From: Lucinisca nassula
Lineage: Eukaryota > Mollusca > Bivalvia > Lucinida > Lucinidae
Assembly: GCA_963580285.1 (NCBI GenBank)
Contig: OY757015.1
Span: 132,564,029-132,628,028 of the forward strand
Length of the DNA stretch: 64,000 bases
Direction of reading: 5' to 3'
The notes under the pieces were generated by a model. The model did not search any database and was not told the DNA's origin. It was given only the letters and a program-made list of their open reading frames with translations. A program made the translations under genes and the position numbers. Of this stretch, positions 32,907-51,475 are shown piece after piece (the first letter of the stretch is position 1; the number at the start of each line of letters is the position of its first letter).

Positions 32907-32912
32907 ATAGCG
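32907..32912. repeat. Target site duplication, left (ATAGCG)
   Basis: Identical to 51470-51475 directly outside the other end of the Polinton. A 6-bp duplication is the hallmark of Polinton/Maverick integration. Confidence 0.92.
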
Positions 32913-33507
32913 AGTAGTAAGGGCCCCACTTGGGCATCATGGACTGCGCATGCGCAGCATTTGTATAACTTCCGGTGAAACGTAAGCGAAACGATTAGAT
33001 GACGAAACTACCCTAAATATCGGACGTGTGTTCGAATGACGTAACTCGCGGTAATTACGCCGTAAGTATCCTAAATTTTGAGGCGAAAGATGTTCCCGCG
33101 GATTGGCGAAGTTCGCCGTCCCCGATCTGGTCGGGGTGATTGGGGTCTACCCCGTTCGCTCGAGCTCTCCTATCCCAATATTTAGGGAGATACTACCCGG
33201 TATAGTATTGATGAAATTAAGTCTCTCACCCGCAAAACAATTATCGCCTCGAAAACCGGGAAACAATGGAAGGTGTTGGAAGAGCTCGACTCGATGCGAG
33301 AAACTAGTAATGGACCGCGTCCCGGAAAAAAAAAAGTTTGGTTCGTTCGATTTTAGGTTTAACGTCCCCGTCAACGCCGTATAGATCATTTTGGGGACAT
33401 TGCTTCCAGTCGCGCGAGACCTTTACCGGACATATCTACGACATTTGTATCTCGGAGAATCTTTCTCGGCTACGGAATTTATACGGATATCAGGGGGGCG
33501 TAGCCAG
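32913..33507 (+). repeat. Left terminal inverted repeat
   Basis: About 595 bp, matching the reverse complement of 50866-51469 with scattered differences and a few short indels. Ordered landmarks: GGACTGCGCATGCGCAGCAT, CCGGTGAAACGTAAG, TTACGCCGTAAGTATCCTAAATTTTGAGGCGAAAGATG, CCCAATATTTAGGGAGATACTACCCGGTATAGTATTGATG, a SINE-A tail fragment at about 33341-33410, and ATACGGATATCAGGGGGGCGTAG. The open frame 33103-33384 has no recognisable product and its counterpart in the other repeat differs, so it is not called. Confidence 0.93.
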
Positions 33508-33633
33508 AGCAAAAAAAAAAAAAAAGTATTGATCAATACAGAGCGAGTTTGGTCATGTCTAAATTATCTCATCTGATTGGTTGGAGCAATGAGTTAAACC
33601 TTTCTGCGTGCTGGTCAAGACCTCAGTTTCAAA

Positions 33634-33942
33634 ATGAATTCGTGTTGTAAAGTGTCAAACCACGCGATAGAAAAACATCTTTACTCCGAGAGTATGGGAG
33701 CTTCTGTCTTTTCAAATAGACGTGTCATGTTTGATAGTATCAAGAAGTGTTTGGATAAGCCTGACAAAAAGAACGTGTGCGGTAAAAGGCTCGAACTCAT
33801 AAAAACCTTTACTTTTGACATAGGAATTTTGGGATACAGCAGACGAACGAGCAACACCATTAAAGTCGTGTGTACTCAAACCAGGAGAAAAACGCTTGTC
33901 ATAACCGCTTATCCGATAGTGACATTCATCGAACGTGTTTAG
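33634..33942 (+). CDS. Small EndoU/BECR-fold-like nuclease domain protein (tentative)
   Basis: 102 residues, the first gene inside the left terminal repeat. The pattern is a His-containing start (H10, H15), a central helix ending in DKP (about 41-43), a strand IKVVC (76-80) and a terminal ITAYP motif (90-94). This order resembles the EndoU/barnase-RelE-colicin (BECR) ribonuclease domains found at the ends of bacterial polymorphic toxins and in related families. I base the link only on this motif pattern; overall similarity is weak and no full catalytic set can be fixed by eye. An ATTGG box (inverted CCAAT) lies about 60 bp upstream, and no TATA box is evident. If real, it could be an RNase acting on host RNA or a self-limiting factor. 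It is not among the usual Polinton genes. It ends before the promoter of the PC4-like gene. A lineage-specific protein of unknown fold is the alternative. Confidence 0.5.
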   Translation: MNSCCKVSNHAIEKHLYSESMGASVFSNRRVMFDSIKKCLDKPDKKNVCGKRLELIKTFTFDIGILGYSRRTSNTIKVVCTQTRRKTLVITAYPIVTFIERV

Positions 33943-33953
33943 ACACGTTGTAT

Positions 33954-34035
33954 CCAATCAGCGACAGCCGTGAAAGAACCAATCGGATTGTACCGCATAA
34001 GTATATATACCTCGTTCGCGCGGTACTGTGTCATT
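33954..34035 (+). promoter_or_regulatory. TATA/CCAAT promoter of the PC4-like gene
   Basis: CCAAT boxes at 33954-33958 and 33979-33983 and a TATATATA box at 34002-34009, with an initiator-like TCATTCA near 34031-34037 about 25-30 bp downstream. This fits a canonical RNA polymerase II core promoter, with the start codon at 34048. The presence of a strong TATA box is notable because the element also encodes a TBP homologue. Confidence 0.65.
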
Positions 34036-34047
34036 CAATAAGGAAAC

Positions 34048-34539
34048 ATGGCAAACTACAGATGTCGGTTCAGTCTCGGGAATGATCGTTACGTGGAAGT
34101 GCACGAATGGAAGGGCGAGTTACGGGTCGATATCAGGGAGTGGAAAGACGATAAACCGACTAAGAAAGGAATCAGTCTAAACTTGATGCGGTGGAAGAAT
34201 TGGCTCGATCAGTTGGAATACGTGGATAAGGCATTAGAAAAGAAACAGGTCTATAGATGTCATCTCGGAGGGAACGTATTCTGTAAGATCGGCGAAAATA
34301 GTGTCTGCGTAGATATAAGACAATACTGGAAACCACGGGACGAAGTTGTACCAACGAAAACGGGAATATGCTTGAGGCCATCGGAATTCAATCGTTTGAA
34401 AGACTTGTTATCAGAAATAGGAAATACATTGCCCGAACTCAACCCAGTGGTCCCTTGCTTTCTGCAAAGTGACCATTTGAATCAGTTGGGAGCTTTACAG
34501 TGCTCAGAGTGCAATCCGAACGATTACCAAAACTGGTGA
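34048..34539 (+). CDS. Tandem PC4/Sub1-like transcription coactivator
   Basis: 163 residues made of two PC4 (p15/SUB1) domains. Domain 1 (about 3-58) reads YRCRFSLGNDRYVEV, then VDIREW, then KKGISLNLMRWKNW. Domain 2 (about 70-130) has FCKIGENSVCVDIRQYW and KTGICLRPSEFNRLKDLL. Each shows the PC4 plan: a beta sheet ending in a V-D-I-R motif, a K-GI-L turn and one helix. In the family this fold binds single-stranded DNA and acts in polymerase II transcription; cellular PC4 works as a dimer of one-domain subunits, so the duplication may give an intrachain dimer. A C-terminal tail has a CSEC pair. The gene has its own CCAAT/TATA promoter (33954-34035) and lies just inside the left end. With the TBP homologue at 36205 it suggests that the element controls its own transcription. 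The domain call is firm; the role is inferred. Confidence 0.85.
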   Translation: MANYRCRFSLGNDRYVEVHEWKGELRVDIREWKDDKPTKKGISLNLMRWKNWLDQLEYVDKALEKKQVYRCHLGGNVFCKIGENSVCVDIRQYWKPRDEVVPTKTGICLRPSEFNRLKDLLSEIGNTLPELNPVVPCFLQSDHLNQLGALQCSECNPNDYQNW

Positions 34540-34656
34540 AGACAGTGACACGAACGAAAGTAAATTGTCATAAACACGAAACAGACGTATACAACGCGTC
34601 ATAATTATGGAGCATGATTGCGAATACGTGACAGAATATAGAGTGATAGACCCCAA

Positions 34657-34836
34657 ATGACAAATATAAATATGTTTGGTATGGCAATGATGACTTTGGC
34701 GTTGTTGGATGAACTGTTGTTATGGCTGAGGTGTTTTCAATTACGACGGGAAGCCAGGGAGGCTGCGGAGCGCTTTATAGAAGCGTTTGAGAGACACGAT
34801 GACGATGTATCGCACTTATATAGCGTTATATTGTAA
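34657..34836 (+). CDS. Possible small protein, 59 residues
   Basis: An intact short frame in the 460-bp gap between the PC4-like gene and the integrase. The first part is hydrophobic and methionine/leucine-rich (MAMMTLALLDELLLWL). The second is a charged, probably helical stretch rich in R, E and A. Its start overlaps by ATGA the stop of an even shorter frame at 34606-34659, a junction style used by other genes of the element. An AATAAA follows at 34995-35000, immediately before the integrase start. I recognise no family. It may be a small membrane or amphipathic protein, or chance. Confidence 0.3.
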   Translation: MTNINMFGMAMMTLALLDELLLWLRCFQLRREAREAAERFIEAFERHDDDVSHLYSVIL

Positions 34837-34994
34837 ATTACATGCATACTTTTTGAATATTTGTTTCAAACTTTATATATCCATTGTTTCCACGTGACAC
34901 AGTATACACACTTGTTTTCATCGTTTTGTATCCTATAGGTTTAGTATCGTTTTATAGTTTTGTAAGAATATTCGTTTGCCATAGTCTTCGTTAA

Positions 34995-35000
34995 AATAAA
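34995..35000 (+). terminator. AATAAA polyadenylation-type signal before the integrase
   Basis: Exact hexamer two bases ahead of the integrase start codon. It could end transcripts from the PC4-like or small-ORF unit. Evidence is the hexamer only. Confidence 0.35.
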
Positions 35001-35001
35001 G

Positions 35002-36126
35002 ATGACTGACTGGAAGCAATATTTATCTTCCTTGTATTTTAATCCCAAATCCCCAGGCAGTTACCTAGGGCCGGAGAAACTGTACCAGATCGTCAAAACT
35101 CGAGGCCAATTTAAAATTGGCAGGCACCGCATACGCAAATGGCTGCAAGACCAGGAGTCGTATTCCCTGGCTAGAGGCGCCAGACGTAAATATACCCGGT
35201 CTAGGGTAATTGTGGCTGGCATTGACAGTCAGTGGGATATGGATCTGATGGATATGGTTGACATTTCCAAACAGAATGACGACTATCGATACGTACTGGT
35301 CTCCATAGACATTTTCTCTCGTTTTGCTCATTGCCGGCCCGTAAAAAGTAAAAAAGGGGTCGATATTGTCACAGCCCTACAAGTCATTCTTAAAGGACCG
35401 AGAAAACCTAACACGATTAGGACTGACCGAGGTATGGAATTCCGTAGTAAAGAGGTCAATACATATTTAAAAAACAAAAACATCCATCATTTTTACGCCC
35501 TGAATACGGAGACCAAAGCAAATTACAGCGAACGGTTAATCAAGACTTTAAAACATAAGTTGTTTAGGTATATGATGAAAAATAGAACGCAGCGGTATGT
35601 CGACATTCTTCAAGATGTAGTTCACAGCTATAATCAAACCGTACATAGAAGTCTCGGTCAACCCCCGGCTTCCATTTCAAAGGAAAACGAAGGCGAAAGT
35701 AGGTTGCAGCAGTATTTATTGAGACAGGCCGGGGACAAATCGAAAAAAAGAAGCAAACGGAAAACCAAAAAGCAGTACAAATTTAAACTCGGTCAAACGG
35801 TACGCATATCGCACGTGAGAACTTTATTCGATAGAGAATATTCGCAAAAATGGACTGGCGAAATATTTAAAGTCAGCTCGCGTTTTAGAAGAGAGGGTAT
35901 CCCGGTTTATAGGCTCGAATCCTGGGATGACGAAAAAGTGGAAGGTACCTTTTATGAACAGGAACTTCAGAAGATTCGCGTGGACGATTCTACCGAATAT
36001 TACATCCAAGAGATATTAAAAAGACGCGTCCGAAACAAGCGAAAAGAAGTTCTCGTTCGCTGGTTGCACTGGCCCAAGAAATATGACAGCTGGATTCCGG
36101 AAGAAGACGTGAAAGACTACTCGTAG
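35002..36126 (+). CDS. INT: Polinton integrase, DDE family with chromodomain
   Basis: 374 residues, retroviral-type integrase that would insert the element and make the 6-bp target duplication. The N-terminal part (1-60) has the Polinton pattern PGSYLGPEKLYQIVK and KWLQDQESY in place of a clear zinc finger. The rve core runs from about 70 to 225, with the acidic triad apparently at D81 (in WDMDLMDM), D142 (in RTDRGMEF) and E177 (in TKANYSERLIK). A basic linker follows (245-262, KKRSKRKTKKQYK), then an SH3-like region. Residues 331-374 form a chromodomain, with YYIQEIL, the aromatic WLHWP and YDSWIP. The chromodomain may direct integration to methylated-histone chromatin. The frame is uninterrupted and of normal length. 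It lies on the same strand as the capsid genes; the next gene (TBP-like) starts 78 bp downstream. Confidence 0.95.
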   Translation: MTDWKQYLSSLYFNPKSPGSYLGPEKLYQIVKTRGQFKIGRHRIRKWLQDQESYSLARGARRKYTRSRVIVAGIDSQWDMDLMDMVDISKQNDDYRYVLVSIDIFSRFAHCRPVKSKKGVDIVTALQVILKGPRKPNTIRTDRGMEFRSKEVNTYLKNKNIHHFYALNTETKANYSERLIKTLKHKLFRYMMKNRTQRYVDILQDVVHSYNQTVHRSLGQPPASISKENEGESRLQQYLLRQAGDKSKKRSKRKTKKQYKFKLGQTVRISHVRTLFDREYSQKWTGEIFKVSSRFRREGIPVYRLESWDDEKVEGTFYEQELQKIRVDDSTEYYIQEILKRRVRNKRKEVLVRWLHWPKKYDSWIPEEDVKDYS

Positions 36127-36204
36127 TCAGAAATCACGTGAATTTATGTCGGACAAAATAGACATACACACCAATTCGTATTCATTGTTTGACAAGACGC
36201 CAAG

Positions 36205-36732
36205 ATGAAAATTACCAACGTGGTATATAGCGCCCAATTAAATTGTCCGATCGACCTGATAGAATTATGTCAACGTATATGGAACGCTCGATATGACCCG
36301 AGATCTTTTCCAGGTCTTATATGGCAGCATAGAACTATCGGTGGCAACTGTCTCGTGTTTTCCAGCGGCGCTATCAACTGCAATGGAAGAGCCTCAGACG
36401 TAGAAGAGGGACGGAAACGTTTGCGCAGATATGCCAGACAGCTTCAAACACTAGGTTATCCCGCCAGCCTAGGAACGGTTAGGATGTTGACAGCGTCTGC
36501 CAGTCACTCTCTTAGCGCTGAATTGGACTTAAAGGCGTTGGCTGAGGAAAGAAGTGTAGTGTACGAGCCAGAGTTGTTTCCGGCTCTAAATTTCAAAATA
36601 GATGGCGTAAATTTTTGCTGCTTTCATACCGGTAAAGTGGTAATCACGGGTATCAAATTTATGAATCAAATGGATGACGTGGTTTTACCAACACTGATCG
36701 AGCTTGAGCTCTATACTCGTAAGAAGCGGTGA
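36205..36732 (+). CDS. TATA-box-binding protein (TBP) homologue
   Basis: 175 residues spanning a complete TBP saddle of two direct repeats and almost nothing else. Repeat 1 (about 3-88): ITNVVYSAQLNCPIDL, ARYDPRSFPGLIW, LVFSSGAINCNG, RRYARQLQTLGYP. Repeat 2 (about 92-170): YEPELFPALNF and CCFHTGKVVITG. The four phenylalanines that cellular TBP inserts into the minor groove have counterparts at F35, F52, F125 and F140, so DNA bending should be retained. There is no N-terminal extension of the kind found in animal TBP. It lies between integrase and capsid genes in the same orientation, in the same sequence style as its neighbours, so it is part of the element and not a chance host exon. TBP homologues are known in some nucleocytoplasmic large DNA viruses; I do not know of one in the usual Polinton gene set. 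Likely role: recognition of element promoters such as the TATA box at 34002. Confidence 0.93.
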   Translation: MKITNVVYSAQLNCPIDLIELCQRIWNARYDPRSFPGLIWQHRTIGGNCLVFSSGAINCNGRASDVEEGRKRLRRYARQLQTLGYPASLGTVRMLTASASHSLSAELDLKALAEERSVVYEPELFPALNFKIDGVNFCCFHTGKVVITGIKFMNQMDDVVLPTLIELELYTRKKR

Positions 36733-36753
36733 CAAGAAACGCCGACTAAAATC

Positions 36754-37101
36754 ATGGAACATTCCAAAGTTTTCCGTTCCATTCGCTATTTAGCGACCTT
36801 GAGAGATGCCTTACCCGTGGATCGTAGAACCCTGTTACGAAATATTACTCGATTGCAAATGTCATCCATTAGAGAGGTAGCCAAAAGACTGACCAACGGA
36901 ACGATCAATCCTCTAAGAAGGGATGCAAGACTCTTCGAAAGGAGAAGGCTCGCGCTAAGAACGTTAGGGTCGAATAGAGTTAGTTTCCAGAGAAAGAAAG
37001 CATTGGTAAACAGACATTCGTCGTTCATTCCGTCTATGCTGAGAAGCGTTTACCTGATACAAACCATCGTGGACGAGATCCGAACCACCGCAGAAACATG
37101 A
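36754..37101 (+). CDS. Small basic Polinton protein, paralogue A
   Basis: 115 residues, arginine-rich. The centre has RTLLRNITRLQMSSIREVAK, then a linker and ERRRLALRTLG, and near the C terminus FQRKKALVNR and a hydrophobic stretch FIPSMLRSV. The same order (LLR-ITR-Q, then ERRLLHLLG, then KKKAVS, then FIYTLLNIV) occurs in the minus-strand gene 39855-40178, so the two are paralogues. Proteins with this helical, basic plan ending in a lysine cluster and a hydrophobic segment are widespread in Polintons and adintoviruses as I recall; suggested roles are virion core or membrane-active peptides, but none is assigned here. The stop overlaps the start of the penton gene (ATGA at 37098-37101). Confidence 0.75.
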   Translation: MEHSKVFRSIRYLATLRDALPVDRRTLLRNITRLQMSSIREVAKRLTNGTINPLRRDARLFERRRLALRTLGSNRVSFQRKKALVNRHSSFIPSMLRSVYLIQTIVDEIRTTAET

Positions 37102-37544
37102 CAGATTTTTACGCTTATCTCAGTAGCAAAGACTCTTTGGATTTACGTAAGAACAACAACCCTTCCGACTTTTGGATCCAATTTCATAAAACCTATACTC
37201 TGGACGGCCACTGGGTGTGCGCTCTCAAACAGATATCTTTGACGTTAAACTTTACGCCTAGATCGAAAAGAATATATCTCTGTTGCGATATCGTGGAGGA
37301 ATCCTACGTAAGAAACAGAACTATACCGGTGTTGAGAAATATCGAGATCGACAACCGATATAAAAAACTCAAATCTGACAGGTTTGAAGACGCCATCTAT
37401 CTTCCCGTAAACGTGTCAAACTTGACCGCCCTCAGATTATATCTACTAGACGAGGATTTACAACCCGTCACTTTCGATTCGAACGATCTGCATTGCGTGT
37501 TACATTTTAAACAAAATGGGCTCAGTCGAAGTGTACGATATTAA
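37098..37544 (+). CDS. mCP: Penton-like minor capsid protein (single jelly roll)
   Basis: 148 residues. The opening MTDFYAYLSSKDSLDL, followed by NNPSDFWIQFHK, TLDGHWVCALKQISL and then alternating beta strands, is the signature of the Polinton minor capsid protein, a single jelly roll predicted to form pentons at the vertices. Length is somewhat short for the family but the frame is intact. It starts inside the stop of the upstream gene (ATGA overlap) and its last 29 bases overlap the start of the next gene (37516). It lies two genes before the major capsid protein, as expected. Identification is from the N-terminal pattern and gene order. Confidence 0.8.
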   Translation: MTDFYAYLSSKDSLDLRKNNNPSDFWIQFHKTYTLDGHWVCALKQISLTLNFTPRSKRIYLCCDIVEESYVRNRTIPVLRNIEIDNRYKKLKSDRFEDAIYLPVNVSNLTALRLYLLDEDLQPVTFDSNDLHCVLHFKQNGLSRSVRY

Positions 37545-37863
37545 ATCGCAAAAATGGGTCCCCTATATACCAGACTATGACAAATGGTACCAACATTTTA
37601 AAGACTTGAGCGACGGGTACGTTCAACCCGATCACCTCGGTCGTTACGTGGTGGGCGTAGGTGAAAGAAACAGAAAATTGAAGGAAAGTCAAAGACCCGT
37701 GGTAAAATTGGTCAGCCCGGTCGCTCAAGCGGTAGAGATGGCAAAATCCGACATTGAACGTAAGAAAGAAGGTGGTAAGAAGCGTAAGAAGGGAACGGTT
37801 GCCAGAAAAGCATTACCCAAAGAATTTAAACGGTACGCTTACAACCCGGAAGATCAAGTTTAA
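37516..37863 (+). CDS. PY-like basic Polinton protein
   Basis: 115 residues, overlapping the 3' end of the penton gene in another frame. N-terminal half: KWVPYIPDYDKWYQHFKDLS, an aromatic segment. Centre: VVKLVSPVAQAVEMAKSDIE, which I associate with a conserved small protein encoded next to the capsid genes of many Polintons. C-terminal third: lysine/arginine clusters (KKEGGKKRKKG) consistent with nucleic acid binding or nuclear localisation. Possibly a core or capsid-associated protein; biochemical function is not known to me. The major capsid gene begins 8 bp after its stop. Confidence 0.7.
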   Translation: MGSVEVYDIKSQKWVPYIPDYDKWYQHFKDLSDGYVQPDHLGRYVVGVGERNRKLKESQRPVVKLVSPVAQAVEMAKSDIERKKEGGKKRKKGTVARKALPKEFKRYAYNPEDQV

Positions 37864-37871
37864 AGAACGAA

Positions 37872-39128
37872 ATGGACAATTGTCATCAGGAAAATTTATC
37901 GTTATTTTCATTACCACCATCAGATACAGCTTTTCAGTCTAGAGAATGGATCGAATATCGACCTTCAAATCAAGTCACTTCCACCTCAGCGATAGATTTT
38001 AACATTCCTCCTCAGTCATCCGCTTACGTCGATCTCAAACACAGCGTGTTAAACGTGAAACTGCGCTTGACAGATGCTCAAGGTGTTCCGGTAAAAGAGG
38101 ACCGATCTCTCGGACTGATAAACCTTCCATTGCACACGATATTTAGACAGGTAGACGTCACGTTTCAGCAGACATCGCTGTCTCATATCGGAACTAATTA
38201 CGCTTACAAAAGCTATATAGATACAATTCTTAAAACCAATCAAGCCACGCAGGAAAATATACTGTCCAGTCAGCTATTTTATAAAGATACGAGATATAAC
38301 CCAGACGCGGCAAATGCCAGGCTTGGCGGTAACGTGGGACTTTTCGAAAGATACCTCGCAACGAAAGACGGGAAAATTGTGGATCTGGAAGGCCCATTAT
38401 TCCTCGATCTGTTTCAACAGCCAAGACTGTTGGTGAATGGCGTCAGTATTGGGATAAAATTGTGGCCGGGTCAGGACGCTTTCAGACTGATGTCCGACAG
38501 TCCAGATCCCGACGAAAAAGTTCAGATCTTGGATGTTAGATTTAAACTATGCGTACAGCGTTTAAATGGAGGAGTTTTAGTAGCTCACGAAAAACTCTTT
38601 CAAGATCAACCCGCCCTCTACCCGTATCTAAGGTCAGAGATAAAGACTGCCTCCATAGCTCCAGGACAGTACGGATTCAGTGCTGACGACATTTTTCAAG
38701 GCCTCGTTCCGAGCAAACTCGTGGTAGGACTGGTGTCTAGCGCGGCGTACACCGGCGATTACAAGAAAAACCCGCTAAACTTTCAACCGTTTGACTGCAG
38801 TTCGGTCGGGTTGTACGTCGATGGACAGTCATACCCCTCTCAGCCTTTGCAACCCAATTACAGCGCCGATCAGTTTGTGGACTGTTACAGAACTTTGACG
38901 CTCTTCAGAAAAGATATTAACGTGAGTAGAGGCGATTACAAACACGGATACTGTCTCTATGTACTAGACGTAGATCCTTACTATACGTTCAACACTAAAA
39001 GAAAAGGTCATTGTCGGCTGGAACTCAAGTTCGCGACACCCTTGCTGGAAAGCGTCACCCTTATCATGTACGCTACATTTCCGGAAATTCTCCACATAAA
39101 CCAAGCCAGATCCGTGTACTTAAAATGA
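37872..39128 (+). CDS. MCP: Major capsid protein (double jelly roll)
   Basis: 418 residues, close to the usual size for the Polinton hexon-type capsid protein. Family features: an early YRPSNQV...IDFNIPPQSSAYVDLKHS strand region (29-58), INLPLHTIFRQVDVTF (84-99), YAYKSYIDTIL, a second jelly roll in the C-terminal half with LYVDGQSYPSQPLQPNY, and the terminal CRLELKFATPLLESVTLIMY and ARSVYLK. It would form the pseudo-hexameric shell of an icosahedral virion, with the minor capsid protein at the vertices. No stop or frameshift is seen. Its TGA stop overlaps the ATG of the protease gene (ATGA, 39125-39128). The presence of intact capsid, ATPase and protease genes together implies capacity for particle formation. 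Confidence 0.92.
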   Translation: MDNCHQENLSLFSLPPSDTAFQSREWIEYRPSNQVTSTSAIDFNIPPQSSAYVDLKHSVLNVKLRLTDAQGVPVKEDRSLGLINLPLHTIFRQVDVTFQQTSLSHIGTNYAYKSYIDTILKTNQATQENILSSQLFYKDTRYNPDAANARLGGNVGLFERYLATKDGKIVDLEGPLFLDLFQQPRLLVNGVSIGIKLWPGQDAFRLMSDSPDPDEKVQILDVRFKLCVQRLNGGVLVAHEKLFQDQPALYPYLRSEIKTASIAPGQYGFSADDIFQGLVPSKLVVGLVSSAAYTGDYKKNPLNFQPFDCSSVGLYVDGQSYPSQPLQPNYSADQFVDCYRTLTLFRKDINVSRGDYKHGYCLYVLDVDPYYTFNTKRKGHCRLELKFATPLLESVTLIMYATFPEILHINQARSVYLK

Positions 39129-39538
39129 ATAACCTTCAACTACAAAGTATTCTAAGAGGGTACCCCGTCAGAATTTGTTCAGTCGATAATGTTAAAAAGG
39201 AGAGATTCGTGATCGCCAATACGGACAAAAGCGGTGGACCGGGCAAGCATTGGGTTGCATTTTACTTTAATGAAAGTGGACACGACGAATTCTTTGATTC
39301 TCTCGGTAACACAGCGGAGTACTATAATTTTGGACACGTATTACGGAAACCGTATTTAAGGAACAGAAATCGCTTACAAGACTTTGGTTCTGATACGTGT
39401 GGCCAGTACTGTATATATTATGTCGTGTGCCGATATGTCGGAATGTCATTGAAAGATATCGTAAACACGTTTAGCGTGAGAGATTTAGAGATGAATGATA
39501 GATTTGTGAGAACATTTGTAAATACAACGCAACTATAA
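39125..39538 (+). CDS. PRO: Adenain-like cysteine protease
   Basis: 137 residues when started at the ATG that overlaps the capsid stop. The longer frame open from 39011 lies wholly within the capsid gene in another frame and is not used. Motifs of adenovirus-type/Ulp1-type C5/C48 peptidases: GKHWVAFYF with H42, DEFFDSLG with D58, Q85 in LQDFG as the oxyanion residue, and DTCGQYC with C92, directly before glycine, as the likely nucleophile. Spacing H-x15-D and Q-x6-C fits the family. In adenoviruses and by inference in Polintons this enzyme cleaves capsid and core precursors during virion maturation. It is the last plus-strand gene; AATAAA follows at 39563. Confidence 0.9.
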   Translation: MNNLQLQSILRGYPVRICSVDNVKKERFVIANTDKSGGPGKHWVAFYFNESGHDEFFDSLGNTAEYYNFGHVLRKPYLRNRNRLQDFGSDTCGQYCIYYVVCRYVGMSLKDIVNTFSVRDLEMNDRFVRTFVNTTQL

Positions 39539-39554
39539 TGTAGTTTTACATCGC

Positions 39555-39568
39555 TTTATTTCAATAAA
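39555..39568. terminator. Bidirectional polyadenylation signals between converging arms
   Basis: TTTATT at 39555-39560 (AATAAA on the minus strand) and AATAAA at 39563-39568 on the plus strand sit two bases apart in the 59-bp gap between the protease and the first minus-strand stop. This places the 3' ends of both transcription units back to back. Confidence 0.7.
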
Positions 39569-39597
39569 ACTTTTATAACAAAAATATTGTCTTTGTT

Positions 39598-39852
39598 TTA
39601 AAATGATATCCAGTCCACGAATTTATCAGTCTTTGCTTTTTCTGCCTTTTTCTCCCGTTTCCCCGGGGGTGGAGGCGCGAACACGGTTTGGCTCTTTGGC
39701 TCGGTCTTCTTTCTCTTCACCATAGCGGGGGATGGTTTAGTTTCCACCTTTTGCGAGTGAGAAGATGGCGTTTGCCTTTCTACGGAAGGCTCTCCTTTAA
39801 CATTCAACATCCTTCGGTATTTATCGTAGGGGACAAGTACTAGCTTTTCCAT
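39598..39852 (-). CDS. Proline/lysine-rich Polinton protein (PX-like)
   Basis: 84 residues. It starts MEKLVLVPYDKYRRML, a hydrophobic/basic opening I recognise from a small conserved Polinton protein. A low-complexity middle is rich in S, K, P and E, then FAPPPPGKREKKAEKAK, and a C-terminal tryptophan-containing hydrophobic end. The PPPG turn followed by basic residues suggests a membrane- or core-associated processed peptide. It is encoded two bases downstream of the small basic protein B stop and is the last gene of the minus-strand cluster. Function unknown. Confidence 0.65.
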   Translation of the reverse strand: MEKLVLVPYDKYRRMLNVKGEPSVERQTPSSHSQKVETKPSPAMVKRKKTEPKSQTVFAPPPPGKREKKAEKAKTDKFVDWISF

Positions 39853-39854
39853 CT

Positions 39855-40178
39855 CTATTTGAGTACTGCTTCTAAGTAAGGTACGACTATATTCAGAAGG
39901 GTGTAAATAAATCGTTGTTTATCCGAAACGGCCTTTTTCTTGTGATGATAACCAACGGTTCTATCTCCCAACAGGTGTAAAAGGCGTCTCTCGCGTTTAA
40001 GCGCTTTTTTCTGTGCCGAGGTCAACTTTATCTTGCATTTCACGACGTTATGCGCTATCTGACTTATCGCTCTCAGTTGCTGTCTGGTAATCGTTCGCAG
40101 TAGTACCTTGCGTTGACCCGGTGTAGTTTGGGCAAATAAAAGCAAAAAGTGACGTTCTTGTACGAGTAGCTGAACCAT
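39855..40178 (-). CDS. Small basic Polinton protein, paralogue B
   Basis: 107 residues. RKVLLRTITRQQLRAISQIA, LTSAQKKALKRERRLLHLLG, YHHKKKAVSDKQRF and the hydrophobic end IYTLLNIVVPYLEAV. It aligns through its length with 36754-37101 on the other strand. B has the more typical Polinton form, with a KKKAV cluster followed by a hydrophobic segment. Probably a structural or core component; not assigned further. It is flanked by the ATPase gene 29 bp upstream and the PX-like gene 2 bp downstream. Confidence 0.75.
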   Translation of the reverse strand: MVQLLVQERHFLLLFAQTTPGQRKVLLRTITRQQLRAISQIAHNVVKCKIKLTSAQKKALKRERRLLHLLGDRTVGYHHKKKAVSDKQRFIYTLLNIVVPYLEAVLK

Positions 40179-40207
40179 GGTTCCTCTTGTAGGTCTGTTT
40201 CTTGTTC

Positions 40208-40864
40208 TTACGTCAGTCGATAAACCACGGGGTCTTCATCCGGGAATATGCGAGTTCTAAGACGATATCTGTTGTCAGCATGAGGACTCATATCTACCAC
40301 AAAATAGCCGTGTTTTTCGGTGCTGAGAGCATCTTCGTACGCTCGTAAGAATCCTTTCGATTTCCCGGGATGCAGCTGGCGTCCTAGAATTGCGACTTGA
40401 GACGCATCTCGTAGATTTTTCAGAAGCACCATATACCACGTGTTTAAAGCTATCGTTCTGGCGTGTTTACCTCCCGGATATAAGTTTTGATTTATCAGTA
40501 TCACGCTGACGCATTTGTGATGGGTCCCTTGCGTAAATAATAATTCCATGTCTTTGTTGCTCATAACTTGGTGCATTAGATCATCGATGACGATAAGCTT
40601 ATGACGCTTGTCTTTGGTAAACTCGTCAATTTCTTCGGTAGAGGGTAGACCCCGTTTACTATAAAAATTGGGTACCGTCCGTTCCATGTCGTCGAAGAGA
40701 TCTTGGTGTATGCCGTAGCAGTATAATACGTGGGTAGGTGGTTCTCTCGTATACATGTATTGCAAATTATTCAGGAACTTGTACACCCACCTCGTTTTAC
40801 CGCTACCCGTTTGACCACTGATACACATGCTAGAGCAAGGTTCGAAAGGCAGGGTACAGCTCAT
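40208..40864 (-). CDS. ATP: Genome-packaging ATPase (A32/FtsK-HerA type)
   Basis: 218 residues. Walker A GQTGSGKT at 17-24 and Walker B KLIVIDDLM at 89-97 (acidic pair D94-D95), followed by a polar strand SVILINQNLY with the sensor-type asparagine, and an arginine in LKNLRDASQ that may serve as an arginine finger. This layout is that of the poxvirus A32-like packaging ATPases carried by Polintons, which pump DNA into preformed capsids. Intact and of normal length. Its ATG overlaps the stop of the upstream membrane-protein gene (ATGA at 40861-40864), so the two are probably expressed together. Confidence 0.92.
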   Translation of the reverse strand: MSCTLPFEPCSSMCISGQTGSGKTRWVYKFLNNLQYMYTREPPTHVLYCYGIHQDLFDDMERTVPNFYSKRGLPSTEEIDEFTKDKRHKLIVIDDLMHQVMSNKDMELLFTQGTHHKCVSVILINQNLYPGGKHARTIALNTWYMVLLKNLRDASQVAILGRQLHPGKSKGFLRAYEDALSTEKHGYFVVDMSPHADNRYRLRTRIFPDEDPVVYRLT

Positions 40865-41139
40865 TTTTTAAGTTTTGGGCTGGGTAAGGCGTAACCTATG
40901 CAACTACTCAGGAGGCTTATCCAAAGCTCGGTAGATCCGTTTTGTAAAGACAAATTAACTATAGAGGTGATGATGATGACGTATACAATGATCATCTGGC
41001 AAAAGTAGACTATTTCCGCTTTAGGTATACGGGCACCTAACAAGTGCCACCTCTCCGAATTTGATCGATTTTCTTCATCTGATCTGGGTTCATAAATAAA
41101 TGCTTCCCTTTCGGGTTGATGGGGCTCGTTTGTTTCCAT
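40861..41139 (-). CDS. Two-helix membrane protein, Polinton type
   Basis: 92 residues. A charged N-terminal third (about 1-38) is followed by ARIPKAEIVYFCQMIIVYVIIITSIVNL (first membrane helix, about 43-65) and LWISLLSSCIGYALPSP (second hydrophobic segment, about 72-88). The ARIPKAE-IV-FCQ and WISLLSS-IGY-LP motifs are conserved in a small protein next to the ATPase of many Polintons, as I recall. It may be a virion or internal membrane protein; function unknown. It overlaps the ATPase start by 4 bases. The sequence CCTCGTAAGAA lies 2-12 bases before its ATG. Confidence 0.75.
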   Translation of the reverse strand: METNEPHQPEREAFIYEPRSDEENRSNSERWHLLGARIPKAEIVYFCQMIIVYVIIITSIVNLSLQNGSTELWISLLSSCIGYALPSPKLKK

Positions 41140-42421
41140 ATTCTTACGAGGGGAGTGAAATGAAAATGAAGAATGTCTGTTCTTACTAACATTTATTTGT
41201 TAGCAGTTAACTAGTGACGTATATTACAAGGATAGAAATGAAGCATTGGAACGCTTCGATTTATACATTTTTCATAAATACATAGTAAATAAAAAAGTCA
41301 TATGTTAACAATTGTTATATAACTTACTCATGTTTTCATGTAACAAAGATGTAACTGAGTAACAACGAGATATCCATACCATATACGGTAAATATGTTCT
41401 ATACAAAGGTTATCCTTTGAAAGAGAGGACTACACCACAGAACTGAAAAAAACATGGAGTGCACATAACTTCTGGGCAAGACCAGCTAGTTTCGGCCAAT
41501 TTGGCCTCATCAATCCTGTTTTAGTGACCACGTCTATTAAGCAAGCAATCTGTCTTAAGCAAGCAGGCGTTTGTTTTCCAAACGGGGTAAACGCAATAAA
41601 TTTCACCTGTATTAAGCAATCGCCTGTCTTAAGCAAACACATTTCGGTAATCCTTTAAATGTTTGCTTAGTACGGGTTGGACTGTACTGCATACAATGGA
41701 AAAAAAAATCACTTCAACGAAAAACGAAACGGGTTGATGCAAGAAATTGTTACGACCGTGACAAAACATGAAACAGTCTGTTCAAAAATCGAAACGTGTC
41801 CTATGGTAAAACGCGTGTTAAACAACAAAAATACGAACGGTAGTTACAAAAATGTGAACGGTAAATTACAAAAATCAAAACGCCTCTGGTACATTTCCAG
41901 AGTGGCTGTTACCAAATATCAAAATCATTCCAAATAATATAAACACTAATAGTCGTATAACTTATATAACTGAAATATACTTTTAAGAAAAGTGTCAATA
42001 AAACCATTGACGATCGAACGTCATCACCAGTGACAGTAACAGCACATTGTAAATATCGCATTCTGAATGCAACAATACCGAAATATATCGACGAAAAATG
42101 AGAAGCTTAATACAAGATATTGAAACGACAGTAAAAAAAAAAAAAAAACTTCTCTTGTATCGATTGTAAATAATGATGTACAAAAATGAAAACGTGTTCT
42201 ACGGTAAAATAGGTGTAAACGTGCAAAAATAACAACGACTGTGACACAAATATAAACATTAATTACAAAAATCTAAACAGCTCTCACACATTTCCAGCAC
42301 ACCTAACGCAAAAATCAAAACGACCCTTTCTTTTAAAAGCCAAAAGGTACGGTGTCATAGTTTTCCAAACGTCTTCGTTTGGTATAAACCATTTGATAAG
42401 TTTTTTCTTCTTTACGATTTA
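41140..42421. other. Gap between membrane-protein and polymerase genes; degenerate repeats
   Basis: No convincing gene. 41500-41665 repeats the phrase TCTTAAGCAAGC/TATTAAGCAA several times. 41690-41905 and 42095-42290 are two degenerate copies of one block (GAAACG-GT-T-CTACGGTAAAA..., ACAAAAAT...AACGG..., CATTTCCAG). The second copy carries a 34-nt stretch (42144-42177) matching the polymerase coding strand at 46076-46109 with one mismatch. The 86-residue frame at 41677-41937 lies inside the first block and is not called because of its repeated composition. Confidence 0.6.
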
Positions 42422-45400
42422 TCAATATTCTTTTTCGTTTTCCCTGCAAATTTTGTTTGGATTAGACACCGTGATATTCGGACAACTTTGAGGACTGGTT
42501 ACTATTCGTTTGACACTGTCAAAATTTATTAATTGAGAATTAGTGTAATTCAAAGTGAATCCTCTGATTTTACAAATTTCTTTTTTAGTGTTAGTTTTGT
42601 AGGCGTAATTTTTTGGCCCCCCAGACACAAACTCTACAATGTGCTCCCCAGTTTGCAATTCATCCGTGAGTTCGCCCAGGTAGTCTCCCAGGGGAGGGTC
42701 ATACTGACCGGGACGGCTCACGTAAATAACGCTGTCCGTATCGTAATACAGGACCCGTCTGTCTAACTGTTCTAGTACACTGTAAAGTTTGAGTCTGGCC
42801 CAGCACGTCGTAAATGTAGCCAAATAGATGTTTGTCTTGTTGTCTTCTGGCTGACAATCTTTCTTATATAACCATTCGATTTGTATGGTGTCATTGGTCA
42901 AGATGTGAAAATTAAGAGGTTGTTTCATTGGATCGGTGAATAGCTGGAAGAATAAATTTGCTTCCGTTTCGTGGAAAAATTCTGACTGGCGCATATTTAG
43001 CCTCTGTCCAAACTTGCCCCAAAAACTGTTGAGGCATAATTTGGCCAGTTGCCTCAGTCCGGGGTTCTTTACGATGTTTTCCCGATTCAAAGAAACGCCC
43101 TCTTTTTCGAAATACTGCGAAATGTAGCGTTCCATGTCGTTTTCGTTTTGGATCCAGTCAGGGGGACCGCTGGCTTCTTGTTTAAACTTGAGGAATGTGT
43201 TAATATACTGAGCGAACAGTCCCCCTTCTCTGGTTTCAGGGTCGTATTGGGTCGTTTTCTCCCAGTGGTAAACTTCGTATATTTTGGACAGAGTGTACCC
43301 TAGTCTAATAGCCGTTTCAATCTCCGGAGTACACCACGTGCCAGTCAACTCTCTTTCCTGATCCGAACAAGTGCAATGATTTTGGTTTTCGGTATCCGCG
43401 CAGGTCCTACATAAAGGAAATTTCAGCTTGCCATTGGACCTATAAGGTAGCACAGGGTGGTACAACCCTCTAGGAGGGAGTATCTTGACCTTGGCAATGC
43501 CGAAATAGTCCTTTATGTCCCCAAAGTCTTTCGTGATGATAGCGGGGTGACCTACGGGATAGCGACTGTACTTATTTACCCAAGGGTACAGACTGGTGAA
43601 ATCGACATATTTAACGCGTTCGTTTTCGGACGTTTTGTAGTAGAGTTGACTCGCATTGGTGCGACCCCCGAAGAAACTATCTCTAGGATCCAGTCTGTCC
43701 ATTAAATCTAGTTGATTAATGAAATTTTGGAGGTCAGCGTTTTGTTTTTTCATATTTTGAAATTCGTGTTCCCAAATGCAAACGTATCTCATTCCTAACC
43801 GTTCTATATATGCCTTCTTTTTCATGGCCAATGCAAACAATTCTTTAACAGATTGGTTGGTGAGTGGATGGTACGTGTCTTCCCTGTTTTCCGAGAAGCA
43901 TTCAACACAGCCATGAAACAGACACCCTTGATATTCGTAGGCGGTGTTTGTTTCAGCGCAATATCCGTCCAACTTGTATCGGGTGCCTGGTAAGGTTTTT
44001 TCGCCAGTATTCAAAGCGTGTTGAATGCGGACATTGTCGACACGTGACATCCACTCCAACCACTGTATGGACGTTTTACTATATTGATCGTTGTAACCAC
44101 CGGGAGGGATTTTCGCGATAGGCGTGCTTACGAACTCTTTCGCACCCACTCTCTCCCCTTTCAGTTCGGATTCGTGGACCCATTTGTCGCTTCGGAAAAT
44201 GAATAGTTTCCCGTCAGACATTTTGGCGGGAATCCATTCATTTTGCCCTTCTATTTTCACCTTCCACTCCTCTTCAATAAACTTTGTTCTGAAAACGTTC
44301 ATGCATACCGATGCAATTGTAACTGAGTCAAATGGGTCCACGGCCCCGTCCCATTTCTTTTCTAATTTATCTCTATCATTCATGACACCCGTAGCATTCA
44401 TCAACAACTCTCTAAATTTCAAACACGCCTTTCTCAATATATCAACATCGCTACGACAATACTCTAACATTTCTTTTCTAAAATCAAATACGTCATCCTT
44501 TCTATCATTCAACCACTCTAACAATTCCTTTCTCTCTTTCTCACCCATGAAATTGTGTCCGTAATATTTCGCATCCGGGTATGGTCCCACATAATTTTGA
44601 TTCTCTAAAGTATTAAAATAATGTGGGAACCATCCCTTCTTCAACTCTGTCAGTCCAAACGCATCGGGTAATGACGACAATTTCATGGGCAAGAAGTTGA
44701 GACTGTCAATCACCTTGATATGTAAATCCCGCTCCACCGTCATGTACATTATTTTCGAACCGCTATAAATGATTTTATCGGGCCGCATGGATTGGTCTAT
44801 GAGGTACTCTAACAAAAAGTAACCATCATAGCCTTTCATGTTGTGGGCAATGACTTTGAAGTATTTATGATGGTCGGAAAACAACCATTCGCCAAACTTT
44901 TCTGCGGTATCCGCTCCTCGAAAAGTGACCTCCCGAAAACCGCATTTACCGGGACAAGGACCATCGTCTTCGTTGTCATCACATTCCGGGCAACGGGTAC
45001 CGCATTTTTCGCAAACAGATTTCGGGGTCAAAGGATCATTAATACAATTGGGGCATACGGAATGAGCCACGACAAAGTTTGGCCGATGTGTGGCTTTTCC
45101 GCACCACGAGGCGTTACAATGGCGACATTTGGAGCAAGATTTACATAACTGTTCCGATTGACAGTCTTTACAATCATTCTTTTTCAAGGGCTGATAATTC
45201 TCACACTCCGCTCTCTCATCCTGGCTACATTCGAAATCGGCGAAAATATATTTTGGAATGAATTCTTCCTTTGTCGATGTAGATCTTAAATAACATAGAT
45301 GATCGTCCATCACATACTTGTGACAAGAGGAACACAGATGTTCACCGCATTGGTGTTCCTCTGTCTTCCTCTTGTCTTTACGAATAACTTTATAACACGC

Positions 45401-47149
45401 GGGACACTTCCAGTATTTATCGCACTGGGAAGGCCCGCGCGGTTGCCCCTTAGATTTACCTTTTTGATAAACCGGTACTTGTTTATGCTGCTCGTAACAT
45501 GCGTCAGACCGACAGTGCATGTTACAGTCAGGACAAGTGACCGGTTTATCGGTTTTGGGGCAATCGTCTGTCTTACATACTATACAAAACATATCACAAT
45601 GGTGCTTTTCCCTATCATAAAAATGTTTCAAACAGGTCTGACAAAAGTAGACACTGCAAAAGAAACCGGTAATCGAAGTGATTGAATGAAAGTGGTCATC
45701 GTCTACTTGGTAAACGTATACGCAAGGCCGGTCATCGGTGCTGGGACTAGTAATAAACTTATTACCGAGCCTTGCGCTGACCACCATCACCCTCACTCCG
45801 AGTACCGATTCAAATGCCGCTAAATCGTTCAAGCTAGCAGGTCTGTCAAGAGGTACTCCGGCCAGCTGGCTAATGGCTACTGCCAAATCCGTTTGCTCGT
45901 GCCTGTCTTTGGCACGAAGATGTTTGAAGAAGCTTTCGGGCACTTTCCTATAATGCAAAATGAGTTCGCGATTGCTTTTCTTCCCTCGGGTTTTAGAAAT
46001 TTCTGCCCACTCTTCGGGCGTGCATCGGTTTAATTTAGCCCAGCTGACCGAAATGGCTCTTGCCAGACACAACTGATCATTATTTACAATCGATACAATA
46101 GAAGTTTTTATTTTACATGCATTTGTCTCGCCTTTTAGATTTGTGATCCTTTTTCGGGCACCTCCCTTGGGTAGATCGACGGAACCGATTAAGATGTCGA
46201 AACTGTCATCAACGGATAAGTTTTTATTACTGTTGAGGACATTTTCGATGGTTTCCATGACCATGTTCGCGTTGATGTCGTCCCAGGGCTGTAGGGGAAC
46301 TACGATAGGATCGTGCAATCCTTCGTGTTGAATGATCATGCGACCTAAACCGTTTCCCGCTAACGCGCCCCGGGCTTCATTCAACACTTGGTCGAACATC
46401 TCATGCAAACCATCTCTGATGTCCTCCAGTCTTTCTCCGTGATGCTGTTCGTCAATTTTAACCTGGTATCCGCGATCTACCGCTGCATTTTTGGCGTACG
46501 TCCTTCTCGATTTCTCTCTAATTTCGTACTTCAGTCCATTGGCTGGTGGTGGGGTGTCGGGTTTGTGAGATGGTCCCGGCTGAGGCTCATCCCCTCTTCC
46601 TACCTGTAATTATAAAAATAAAAATCGTAATAGTAATAATAATAATAATAACAGTAATAATTATAGCGATAATAATGATAATAATAACAATGACAAAACA
46701 ACAACAACAACGTCTCCTACTTCTACCCCTACTTCTACAGGTACTACTACTACTACTACTACTACCTCTACTACAAATACTACTATTTTCGACTTCTGTT
46801 AATAAAAATAATAACAATAACAAAATATTAAGAATAATGATGGTTACAATAATAGTAATGATAGTAATAATAATAATAACAATGATGATAATAAAACAAC
46901 AACAATGTATACTACTACTATTTCTAGTGCTACTACTACTACTACTACAACTAATACTACTATTTTCGACTACTGTAAATAAAAATAATAACAATAACAA
47001 AATATTAAGAATAATAATGGTTATAAATAATGATTATAATAACAATGCTGATAATAAAACAACGACGTCTACTACTACTATTTCTAGTGCTACTACTAAT
47101 ACTACTACTCCTACTTCTACAGCTACAACTAACACTCCTGCAACTACTT

Positions 47150-47189
<40 letters not shown>

Positions 47190-49240: not shown

Positions 49241-49613
49241 CTTTATCACTCAACTGCTAAAACGATATTAAAACGTTAGGACGGACGTGCGCGTTCTTAC
49301 GAGGAAGCTGAAATCAAAACGAGGCTATCGTCTCCCATTGGCCGATTTTCGACACATTCGGAATGTTGTTTGGCAACTAGTTTTTGATTATTGATAAACG
49401 CCGCCATTATAATGGTCAAGGCGTTGTTATTATGATGTAACGTGGGAACTAATTAAGATGACTTTCTCTGCGACTGCACCTGTCAGTAGTAATATCCTAA
49501 ATGTTGGGATGGAAGACTGCTGCTGCCGTGCACTGGCACACGCCGCGCGTACAACGTTAAAACGACGTCGTTTCGCTAACACGCGCAACAATTCGCGTTA
49601 ACGACGGACTGTC
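49241..49613. promoter_or_regulatory. Presumed upstream region of the polymerase gene
   Basis: Upstream of the first polymerase exon (minus strand). CCTCGTAAGAA at 49294-49304 is identical to the sequence just before the membrane-protein gene. CCCATTGGCC (inverted CCAAT) is at about 49336-49345. No clear TATA box. Promoter function is inferred from position only. Confidence 0.35.
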
Positions 49614-49815
49614 TGACCGCCCCCGCCTATCGGGGCTTGAAGAAAATGATGGGCTGCGTGATGCTTCCACGCAGAGCTGAGTCCGACCACACACGAGTAC
49701 TGGTAAACCGCTTAGAGGATCTAAGCCTGCCCAGGCAAAGCGGTGCTAGTCGGACCGTCCATGCTTATAAACCCTATTGGTTTCATTGGACGACAGGGCT
49801 CGAGATAATCAGAGG
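49614..49815 (+). mobile_element. SINE-A, 3' truncated, inside the Polinton
   Basis: CCCCCGCCTATCGGGGCTTGAAGAAAATGATGGGCTGCGTGATGC through GGTTTCATTGGACGACAGGGCTCGAGATAATC, then lost. Confidence 0.85.
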
Positions 49816-49895
49816 TACGCTCCGGACAAGCTTTATATTTCACCCCGTCTCCGCTATGCCCCTTAGTCGTTGGTTGGACATAAAACGGACAAGCG

Positions 49896-49898
<3 letters not shown>

Positions 49899-49931
<33 letters not shown>
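49899..49931 (+). repeat. (AC)n microsatellite
   Basis: About 16 CA units inside the right arm of the Polinton. Confidence 0.97.
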
Positions 49932-49933
<2 letters not shown>

Positions 49934-50035
49934 CGTATAAGACGCCGTGGTATACAACGTTGCACCAACGTCGCGTCATCGATTTTTTCCTTTCAGAACC
50001 GACTCATTAAGGCGGTTCTATCGAGTACCCACAAT

Positions 50036-50150: not shown

Positions 50151-50246
50151 AGTCCCGTCACGCCGCGCAGACTTTGCGGACGTATTAAATCTATTTCGTT
50201 TGGGTAAAAATATTTCTATGTCGAAAACGGGGCAAAATGATTGATC

Positions 50247-50830: not shown

Positions 50831-50865
50831 CTTCTCATTTTACGCTCCACTCTCATAATGCATAC

Positions 50866-51469
50866 TAGCTACGCCCCCCTGATATCCGTATAAATTCCAT
50901 AGCCAAGAAAGATTCTCCGAGATACAAATGTTGTAGATATGTCCGGTAAAGGTCTCGCCCAACTGGAAGCAACGTCCCCAAAATGATCTATACGGCGTTG
51001 ACGGGGACGTGAAACCTCAAATCGAACAAACAAAACTTTCTTTTCCCGGGACGCAGTCCATTCTTCGTAATCGAAGTTCATCAAATCGCGCTCTTCCAAC
51101 ACCTTCCATTGTTTCCCGGTTTTCGAGGCGATAATTGTTTTGCGGGTGAGAGACTTAATTTGCGCCCCATCAATACTATACCGGGTAGTATCTCCCTAAA
51201 TATTGGGATAGGAGAGCTCGAGCGAACGGGGTAGACCCCGATCACCCCCGACCTGATCGGGGACAGCGAACTTTGCCAATCCGCAGGAACATCTTTCGCC
51301 TCAAAATTTAGGATACTTACGGCGTAATTACGGTAATTTACGTCATTCGAACACTCGTCCGACATTTAGGGTAGTTTCGTCATCTAATCGTTTCACTTAC
51401 GTTTCACCGGAAGTTATACAAATGCTGCGCATGCGCAGTCCATGGCGCCCAAGTGACTCCCTTACTACT
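50866..51469 (-). repeat. Right terminal inverted repeat
   Basis: About 604 bp, reverse complement of 32913-33507, ending AAGTGACTCCCTTACTACT. It includes a SINE-A tail fragment (50968-51030). The open frame 50869-51102 on the minus strand and its neighbours are not conserved in the left repeat and are not called. Confidence 0.93.
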
Positions 51470-51475
51470 ATAGCG
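51470..51475. repeat. Target site duplication, right (ATAGCG)
   Basis: Identical to 32907-32912. Confidence 0.92.

What the first reader, a model, noticed from the sequence alone, without database searches (positions are those of the whole stretch)
36205..36732. A Polinton that carries its own TATA-binding protein
The 175-residue product is a complete two-repeat TBP core with counterparts of all four groove-inserting phenylalanines (F35, F52, F125, F140) and no N-terminal extension. It sits between integrase and capsid genes. I do not know of TBP in the standard Polinton gene set; giant viruses carry distant ones. An element-encoded TBP would let it select its own promoters.
Basis: partly seen in the sequence, partly recalled or inferred. 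Interest (0 to 1): 0.92.

Follow-up and report, generated by a model that had tools for sequence, protein, structure and literature searches.

The report
A Polinton with its own TBP
A virus-like mobile element, repeated many times in what is probably a bivalve genome, carries its own copy of the protein that tells cells where to start reading genes, and that copy seems to have kept the means to work with the host's machinery, which suggests that the element uses it to switch on its own genes.

Summary
Confirmed. 36205-36732 (+) encodes a complete 175-aa two-repeat TBP (PF00352, E 2.1e-29; AlphaFold2 pLDDT 95.8) inside an intact 18.6-kb Polinton (32913-51469, inverted repeats, 6-bp duplication ATAGCG). 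It is neither unique to this copy nor a recent host retrocopy: 33% identical to human TBP; 150 scored matches in the genome, 126 without stops, 27 coding for the identical protein; capsid-type genes downstream in 19 of 20 fetched pieces, integrase upstream in 11; dN/dS between diverged copies 0.06-0.11. I saw 176 database relatives; those named for an animal are bivalves; 46 selected form one clade (100/100). Polinton context outside this genome was not seen directly. The element also encodes a double-PC4 coactivator.

In other viral TBPs the first TFIIB-contact acidic position is kept in about 40% and almost all come with a viral TFIIB (PMC7221094). Here both glutamates are kept (96 and 98 of 104) and no TFIIB was found in 17 ORFs scanned. 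The C-lobe DNA-contact Asn is Thr in 102 of 104. I infer an initiation factor that recruits host TFIIB and Pol II to element promoters; a TATA box lies upstream of PC4 in 10 of 11 copies. Identity near certain; mechanism inferred. No earlier description was found in open-licence papers searched.

The parts
32907..32912 (.). left target-site duplication ATAGCG
   Evidence: identical 6 bp at both ends
32913..33507 (+). left terminal inverted repeat, begins AGTAGTAAGGG
   Evidence: four ungapped blocks, 93-99% complementary to the right arm
33634..33942 (+). ORF0, 102 aa, unknown
   Evidence: open frame; related stretches in 11 of 20 fetched pieces
34002..34009 (+). TATA box TATATATA upstream of the PC4 gene
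   Evidence: TATAWA within 100 bp of PC4 in 10 of 11 copies, 4 of 5 less-similar ones, 0 of 300 shuffles as many
34048..34539 (+). transcription coactivator with two PC4 repeats and a C-H-C-C tail
   Evidence: PF02229 E 1.6e-22, two stretches; PDB 1pcf E 1.7e-8; alignment A4
35002..36126 (+). integrase (rve) with chromodomain
   Evidence: PF00665 E 3.2e-12, PF00385 E 3e-7
36135..36140 (+). E-box CACGTG upstream of the TBP gene
   Evidence: CACGTG within 100 bp upstream in 16 of 20 copies, 4 of 5 less-similar ones, 0 of 300 shuffles as many; place checked
36205..36732 (+). TATA-binding protein, 175 aa, two lobes
36754..37101 (+). small protein P36754, 115 aa
   Evidence: directly downstream of TBP in 18 of 20 pieces; weak PF25212 hit below cut-off
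37098..37544 (+). putative minor capsid (penton) ORF
   Evidence: conserved position; no Pfam hit; named by position only
37516..37863 (+). ORF overlapping the putative penton ORF in another frame
   Evidence: related stretches in fetched pieces
37872..39128 (+). putative major capsid protein, 418 aa
   Evidence: conserved, median dN/dS 0.046 over 11 pairs; no significant Pfam or PDB hit; named by position and recalled resemblance
39125..39538 (+). adenovirus-type cysteine protease
   Evidence: PF00770 E 0.001, below curated cut-off
39855..40178 (-). small protein, weak relative of P36754
   Evidence: about 28-30% identity in several copies
40208..40864 (-). A32-type packaging ATPase
   Evidence: PF04665 E 6.7e-4, below cut-off; PF13401 E 3.3e-5, below cut-off
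42422..46408 (-). DNA polymerase B of the organellar and viral type
   Evidence: PF03175 E 1.3e-48
50865..51469 (-). right terminal inverted repeat
51470..51475 (.). right target-site duplication ATAGCG

Best explanation
SHOWN: an intact Polinton carries a TBP gene that purifying selection has kept among the Polintons of this genome; database relatives, where named for an animal, come from bivalves. The protein keeps the TBP fold (predicted), the DNA-wedging phenylalanines and the two glutamates that contact TFIIB, but several C-lobe DNA-facing positions are changed throughout the family. INFERRED: made in the host cell, it binds TATA-like boxes in Polinton promoters (such as the one upstream of PC4), recruits the host's own TFIIB and RNA polymerase II, and with the element's double-PC4 protein forms an element-specific initiation module. 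This would let element genes fire independently of, or in excess of, host TFIID and TBP. As the first gene of the compact capsid array, under a promoter with an E-box, TBP may itself be switched on by host E-box factors and then amplify element transcription.
For: Family, PDB and model evidence. 150 scored matches in the own genome, 126 without stop (hand count of the rows). Of 20 pieces that I chose to span the identity range, capsid-type genes lie downstream in 19, integrase upstream in 11, PC4 in 10. dN/dS between window-type and diverged copies 0.06-0.11 at dS 1.7-2.7, 33 pairs. E121 in 96 of 104, E123 in 98, R74 in 94, R78 in 100. TATA box upstream of PC4 in 10 of 11 copies. No TFIIB domain among 17 element ORFs scanned with Pfam. 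PMC7221094 (sections and passages): in viral TBPs C.L3.2 is conserved in about 40%, and almost all those viruses have a TFIIB-like protein. Giant virus CpV-BQ1 codes for TBP and two TFIIBs, thought to redirect host RNA polymerase (PMC12085832, passages).
Against: No binding, expression or localisation data. TATAWA is absent within 100 bp of the TBP gene in the window copy and in 14 of 20 copies, and upstream of ORF0 in 8 of 8. The basic N-lobe patch is only partly kept (R231 equivalent is R in 39 of 104). Host TBP could serve the same TATA boxes. Nine of 20 pieces had no recognisable integrase beside TBP. Outside this genome, Polinton context is only indirect. Within the diverged subfamilies some pairs reach dN/dS 0.4-0.67, as expected of decaying copies.
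Confidence: 0.6

Rival explanations
1. Competitor of host transcription: the element TBP titrates host TFIIB or host promoters and shuts down or reshapes host gene expression (including antiviral genes) rather than driving element promoters.
For: TFIIB-contact glutamates kept; the E191 equivalent is R in 95 of 104, at a position that I recall as a TFIIA contact (no paper found), so it could make TFIIA-deficient, non-productive complexes.
Against: The TATA box upstream of PC4 is kept across diverged copies, and a PC4 coactivator gene lies two genes upstream in 10 of 20 pieces, which fits activation better.
Confidence: 0.15
2. Replication or integration accessory: the DNA-bending TBP acts at the terminal repeats, or guides integration through TFIIB-like Brf1 towards certain promoters, as TFIIIB does for yeast Ty elements (recalled).
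For: The gene lies next to the integrase; Brf1 and Brf2 have the Arg that can contact the same glutamate (PMC7221094, section read).
Against: No tRNA gene in the 64-kb window (one insertion only, and the program ran with the bacterial code). Nine of 20 pieces have TBP without an adjacent recognisable integrase.
Confidence: 0.1
3. Giant-virus-like orthogonal system: the TBP works only with a divergent TFIIB-like partner, encoded elsewhere in the element or by a helper virus, not with host TFIIB.
For: Long stem (2.09 changes per column) and many fixed changes; most viral TBPs are thought to behave so (PMC7221094, sections read).
Against: TFIIB-contact glutamates kept in 96 and 98 of 104, unlike many of those viruses; no TFIIB domain in 17 scanned ORFs.
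Confidence: 0.12

Closest known systems
Polinton/Maverick elements and adintoviruses
   Same: inverted repeats, 6-bp target duplication, polymerase B, rve-chromodomain integrase, A32-type ATPase, adenovirus-type protease, genes in two blocks of opposite strand
Cellular TBP, TBPL1 and other TBP-related factors
   Same: two-lobe fold, DNA-wedging phenylalanines, TFIIB glutamates
   Different: 33% identical to human TBP (54 of 166); separate clade with a long stem; N257 to Thr in 102 of 104, E191 to Arg in 95 of 104; N.L5.1 is Phe in 104 of 104, where TBPL1 has Trp (PMC7221094, passage)
TBPs of giant viruses and mirusviruses
   Same: virus-encoded full TBP; TBP in 59% of mirusvirus genomes (PMC10132985, passages); CpV-BQ1 has TBP and two TFIIBs (PMC12085832, passages)
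   Different: in the viruses surveyed in PMC7221094 the C.L3.2 position is conserved in about 40% and almost all have a TFIIB; this element is 18.6 kb, of an animal genome, keeps both glutamates and shows no TFIIB. I compared no viral TBP sequence directly
KSHV ORF24, herpesvirus TBP mimic for late genes
   Same: viral protein that replaces TBP at viral promoters while using host Pol II (PMC12529657, passages)
   Different: ORF24 is a large multidomain protein that lacks the TFIIB glutamates; here the protein is a bare TBP core with them

Membership tests
Polinton/Maverick | terminal inverted repeats and 6-bp target-site duplication | tested here: met
Polinton/Maverick | viral-type (protein-primed) DNA polymerase B | tested here: met
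   PF03175 E 1.3e-48; protein priming itself not tested
Polinton/Maverick | retrovirus-like integrase with chromodomain | tested here: met
   PF00665 and PF00385
Polinton/Maverick | A32-type ATPase and adenovirus-type protease | tested here: inconclusive
   right families, but E 6.7e-4 and 1e-3, below curated cut-offs
Polinton/Maverick | double jelly-roll major capsid protein | tested here: inconclusive
   no significant Pfam or PDB sequence hit; structure job not accepted
TBP family | two PF00352 repeats with saddle topology | tested here: met
   (topology from secondary structure of the model; no fold comparison)
TBP family | minor-groove phenylalanines in both lobes | tested here: met
   102, 104, 104 and 83 of 104
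TBP family | binds and bends TATA DNA | not testable with these tools
   needs biochemistry
cellular-type TBP (host TFIIB user) | acidic C.L3.2 and C.L3.4 residues | tested here: met
   E in 96 and 98 of 104, D in 3 more at each position
cellular-type TBP (host TFIIB user) | basic patch on N-lobe helix 2 | tested here: inconclusive
   R235 and R239 equivalents kept in 94 and 100 of 104; R231 equivalent R in 39 of 104; N.L2.3 not assigned
orthogonal viral TBP-TFIIB system | own TFIIB gene | tested here: not met
   no TFIIB domain in 17 element ORFs; not every ORF of 60 aa or more was scanned

The most novel reading that the evidence does not exclude
A whole lineage of animal Polintons encodes a minimal initiation module (a TBP with a rewired C-lobe DNA surface and intact TFIIB docking, plus a double PC4) that nucleates preinitiation complexes at element promoters without TFIID or TFIIA, using host TFIIB and Pol II. 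It would be a natural, self-contained promoter-selecting TBP that departs both from host TBP and from the viral TBPs that work with their own TFIIB or without any.
Probability: 0.35. Interest if true: 0.9.

Novelty: new variant of a known kind. Interest (0 to 1): 0.82.

Why it matters
Polintons are thought to lie near the ancestry of most eukaryotic double-stranded DNA viruses (abstract of PMC7805220, seen in a search listing), yet how they are transcribed is, as far as I know, little studied. An element-encoded TBP that has kept its TFIIB docking gives a directly testable answer, would mark a further route by which virus-like elements take over Pol II initiation, and supplies many diverged natural TBPs for the study of DNA specificity. 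It also warns that gene models called TBP, TBP-like 1 or TBP 2-like in bivalve genomes can be element genes.

Tried and rejected
Relatives were sought in viral contigs and genome contigs: none found. PHROGs gave nothing better than E 0.22 for TBP. A chance or processed-pseudogene origin was rejected. Origin from archaeal TBP is not favoured: the family falls with the eukaryotic rows, away from three archaeal rows (100/99), but the join with TBPL1 is probably long-branch attraction, as the program itself warned, and only 6 reference rows were used, none viral. Linkage of TBP and PC4 outside this genome rests on shared longest-contig lengths in the two hit lists: two long ones (9321 and 2449102 bp), plus three under 1 kb that I take as chance. 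A paper for E191 as a TFIIA contact was not found. A search of the own genome for PF00352, to bring in the host's own TBP, did not complete (19 tries), so the host TBP is missing from tree and comparison. Fold comparison and a second structure job were not accepted. only waited.

Full report
OBSERVATION. The ORF 36205-36732 (+) is present as described and codes for 175 residues. Pfam assigns it to TBP (PF00352, E 2.1e-29, two stretches). A single-sequence search of the PDB gives human TBP at 2.4e-21 and a profile of 120 rows gives plant TBP at 6.4e-30. AlphaFold2 with these 120 rows gives mean pLDDT 95.8 and pTM 0.85, with two successive sets of strand, helix, three strands, helix, which is the TBP topology. 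Fold comparison could not be run.

THE ELEMENT. The gene lies in a complete Polinton. The inverted repeats run inward from 32913 and 51469, begin AGTAGTAAGGG, and are flanked by ATAGCG on both sides. On the plus strand: ORF0, a protein with two PC4 repeats (PF02229, E 1.6e-22; PDB human PC4 E 1.7e-8), the rve-chromodomain integrase, TBP, a small protein, two overlapping ORFs in the usual minor-capsid place, a putative major capsid protein and an adenovirus-type protease. On the minus strand: a second small protein, an A32-type ATPase and polymerase B. The capsid names rest on position and recalled resemblance; no significant sequence hit supports them.

COPIES IN THE SAME GENOME. Of 229 candidates, 150 were scored, and all 150 are listed as matches: 27 identical to the window's protein (the window copy included), others down to 57% identity; 24 rows contain stops and 126 do not; some of the 126 are fragments (hand counts of the rows). 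I chose 20 pieces of 8.2 kb to span the identity range. Capsid-type genes follow TBP in 19 of 20 (in L020 after a gap of 2.7 kb), integrase precedes it in 11, PC4 in 10; L016 showed only ORF0 and TBP; several of these neighbours are broken by frameshifts. I listed ORFs in 4 of the 9 pieces without adjacent integrase (L009, L014, L019, L025): none showed an integrase upstream, and in L014 a frame that resembles, by eye, the start of the polymerase lies there. This may be a rearranged lineage or decay; I did not follow it.

SELECTION. With intact ungapped copies only (15 of the 20 pieces for TBP, plus the window), NG86 dN/dS between the window's type and the more diverged copies is 0.06-0.11 at dS 1.7-2.7 (33 pairs). 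Over all 89 pairs with dS between 0.05 and 3 the median is 0.19 and the range 0-0.67; pairs outside that dS range were dropped. Medians of other genes: PC4 0.082 (18 pairs), integrase 0.207 (4 pairs), small protein 0.191 (68), putative penton 0.109 (61), putative capsid protein 0.046 (11). NG86 is rough at such dS.

RELATIVES ELSEWHERE. P0001 found 171 proteins at E 1e-3 or better (120 listed). A profile of 15 distant members found 353 (120 listed). Together I saw 176 relatives besides P0001 (177 ids held); the unlisted rest may include ordinary TBPs. Organism names of listed TBP hits: Mercenaria mercenaria, Pinctada imbricata, Crassostrea virginica ('TATA-box-binding protein 2-like'), Mytilus edulis ('TBP'), and MAGs of Sedimenticola and Candidatus Thiodiazotropha, which I take to be contamination from lucinid clam hosts (recalled biology). 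PC4 found 192 (120 listed), named ones in Ruditapes, Mactra and Mercenaria. Tree: 46 selected rows are one side of a branch at 100/100 with stem length 2.09; they and three eukaryotic rows are separated from three archaeal rows at 100/99.

WHAT THE RESIDUES SAY. Over 104 rows of at least 160 aa (of the 120, the window's included; 16 shorter ones dropped), the counts that keep the residue of human TBP are F197 102, F214 104, F288 104, F305 83 (His in 17), N167 98 of 100, E284 96, E286 98, R235 94, R239 100, R231 only 39. Of 166 comparable positions 26 keep the human residue in at least 90% of rows. Fixed differences include N257 to T (102), V259 to S (98), E191 to R (95) and L302 to F (102); that N257 and V259 face DNA is recalled. 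Ravarani et al. (PMC7221094; outline, Results parts 1-2 of 4, section 12 and passages) report that viral TBPs keep the L5.1 Phe in 90%, vary at the two TFIIB-contact acidic positions (C.L3.2 conserved in about 40%; some keep the charge), that almost all such viruses have a TFIIB-like protein, and that the eukaryotic N-lobe signature is not kept. The Polinton family differs in the two TFIIB points and partly in the last. That E191 contacts TFIIA is recalled; the search found no paper.

PROMOTERS. Upstream of PC4, TATAWA occurs within 100 bp in 10 of 11 copies; among five less-similar copies four have it, 46-61 bp before the ATG, and no shuffle of 300 gave as many. Upstream of the integrase (140 bp) it is 11 of 12 (6 of 7 less-similar, 0 of 300), but 86-130 bp away. 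Upstream of ORF0 it is 0 of 8. Upstream of TBP it is 6 of 20 (3 of 5; 6 of 300 shuffles as many), one of them a TA microsatellite, while CACGTG is there in 16 of 20 (4 of 5; 0 of 300) (sequences). The less-similar sets were picked by ungapped comparison, so shifted relatives of one subfamily remain in them and the tests are not fully independent. TATA use is therefore not shown for all element genes, and no binding was tested.

LITERATURE. In the open-licence PMC full texts, three papers hold 'Polinton' with 'TATA-binding protein' and three hold 'Polinton' with 'TBP' (one paper is in both). I saw passages of all five: they concern mirusviruses and mirusvirus-like elements, giant-virus TBPs, or host TBP in a review, none a Polinton TBP. 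Looser searches listed none either, but 10, 74, 75 and 80 matched 132, 2869, 3020 and 36 papers of which I saw 20, 30, 20 and 15 in the listing. Main texts of PMC10294476, PMC10120064, PMC11071308, PMC11071296, PMC10328495 and PMC8097293 hold no 'TATA' or 'TBP' (term counts). Subscription papers and most preprints were not searched, so prior mention is possible. The herpesvirus TBP mimic ORF24 (PMC12529657, passages) is the closest functional precedent.

VERDICT. The observation and the core of the interpretation hold. The gene is a stable, selected part of the Polintons of this genome, and probably of a wider bivalve lineage. That it drives element promoters through host TFIIB is the best reading, not yet shown.

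Noticed in passing
window 34048-34539: Double-PC4 protein with a conserved C-x5-H-x8-C-x2-C tail, part of the same element; 192 relatives found.
   Followed up: partly
window 37098-37863: Two overlapping ORFs in different frames at the minor-capsid place, also in many copies; a preprint (PMC11071296, passage) suggests frameshifting near the end of some adintovirus penton ORFs.
   Followed up: no
window 36754-37101 and 39855-40178: The small proteins on the two strands are about 28-30% identical, an apparent duplication.
   Followed up: no
L009, L011, L014, L016, L017, L019, L020, L024, L025: Pieces with TBP but no recognisable integrase or PC4 just upstream; in L014 a polymerase-like start lies there.
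   Followed up: partly
G000, 27 places: 27 copies encode an identical TBP, pointing to a very recent burst of the element.
   Followed up: no
L021: Tandem duplication of the block from TBP to the start of the capsid-type gene.
   Followed up: no
L018, upstream of TBP: Long TA microsatellite just upstream of the TBP start.
   Followed up: no
window 46597-47463: Long trinucleotide-repeat tract inside the element beyond the polymerase gene.
   Followed up: no
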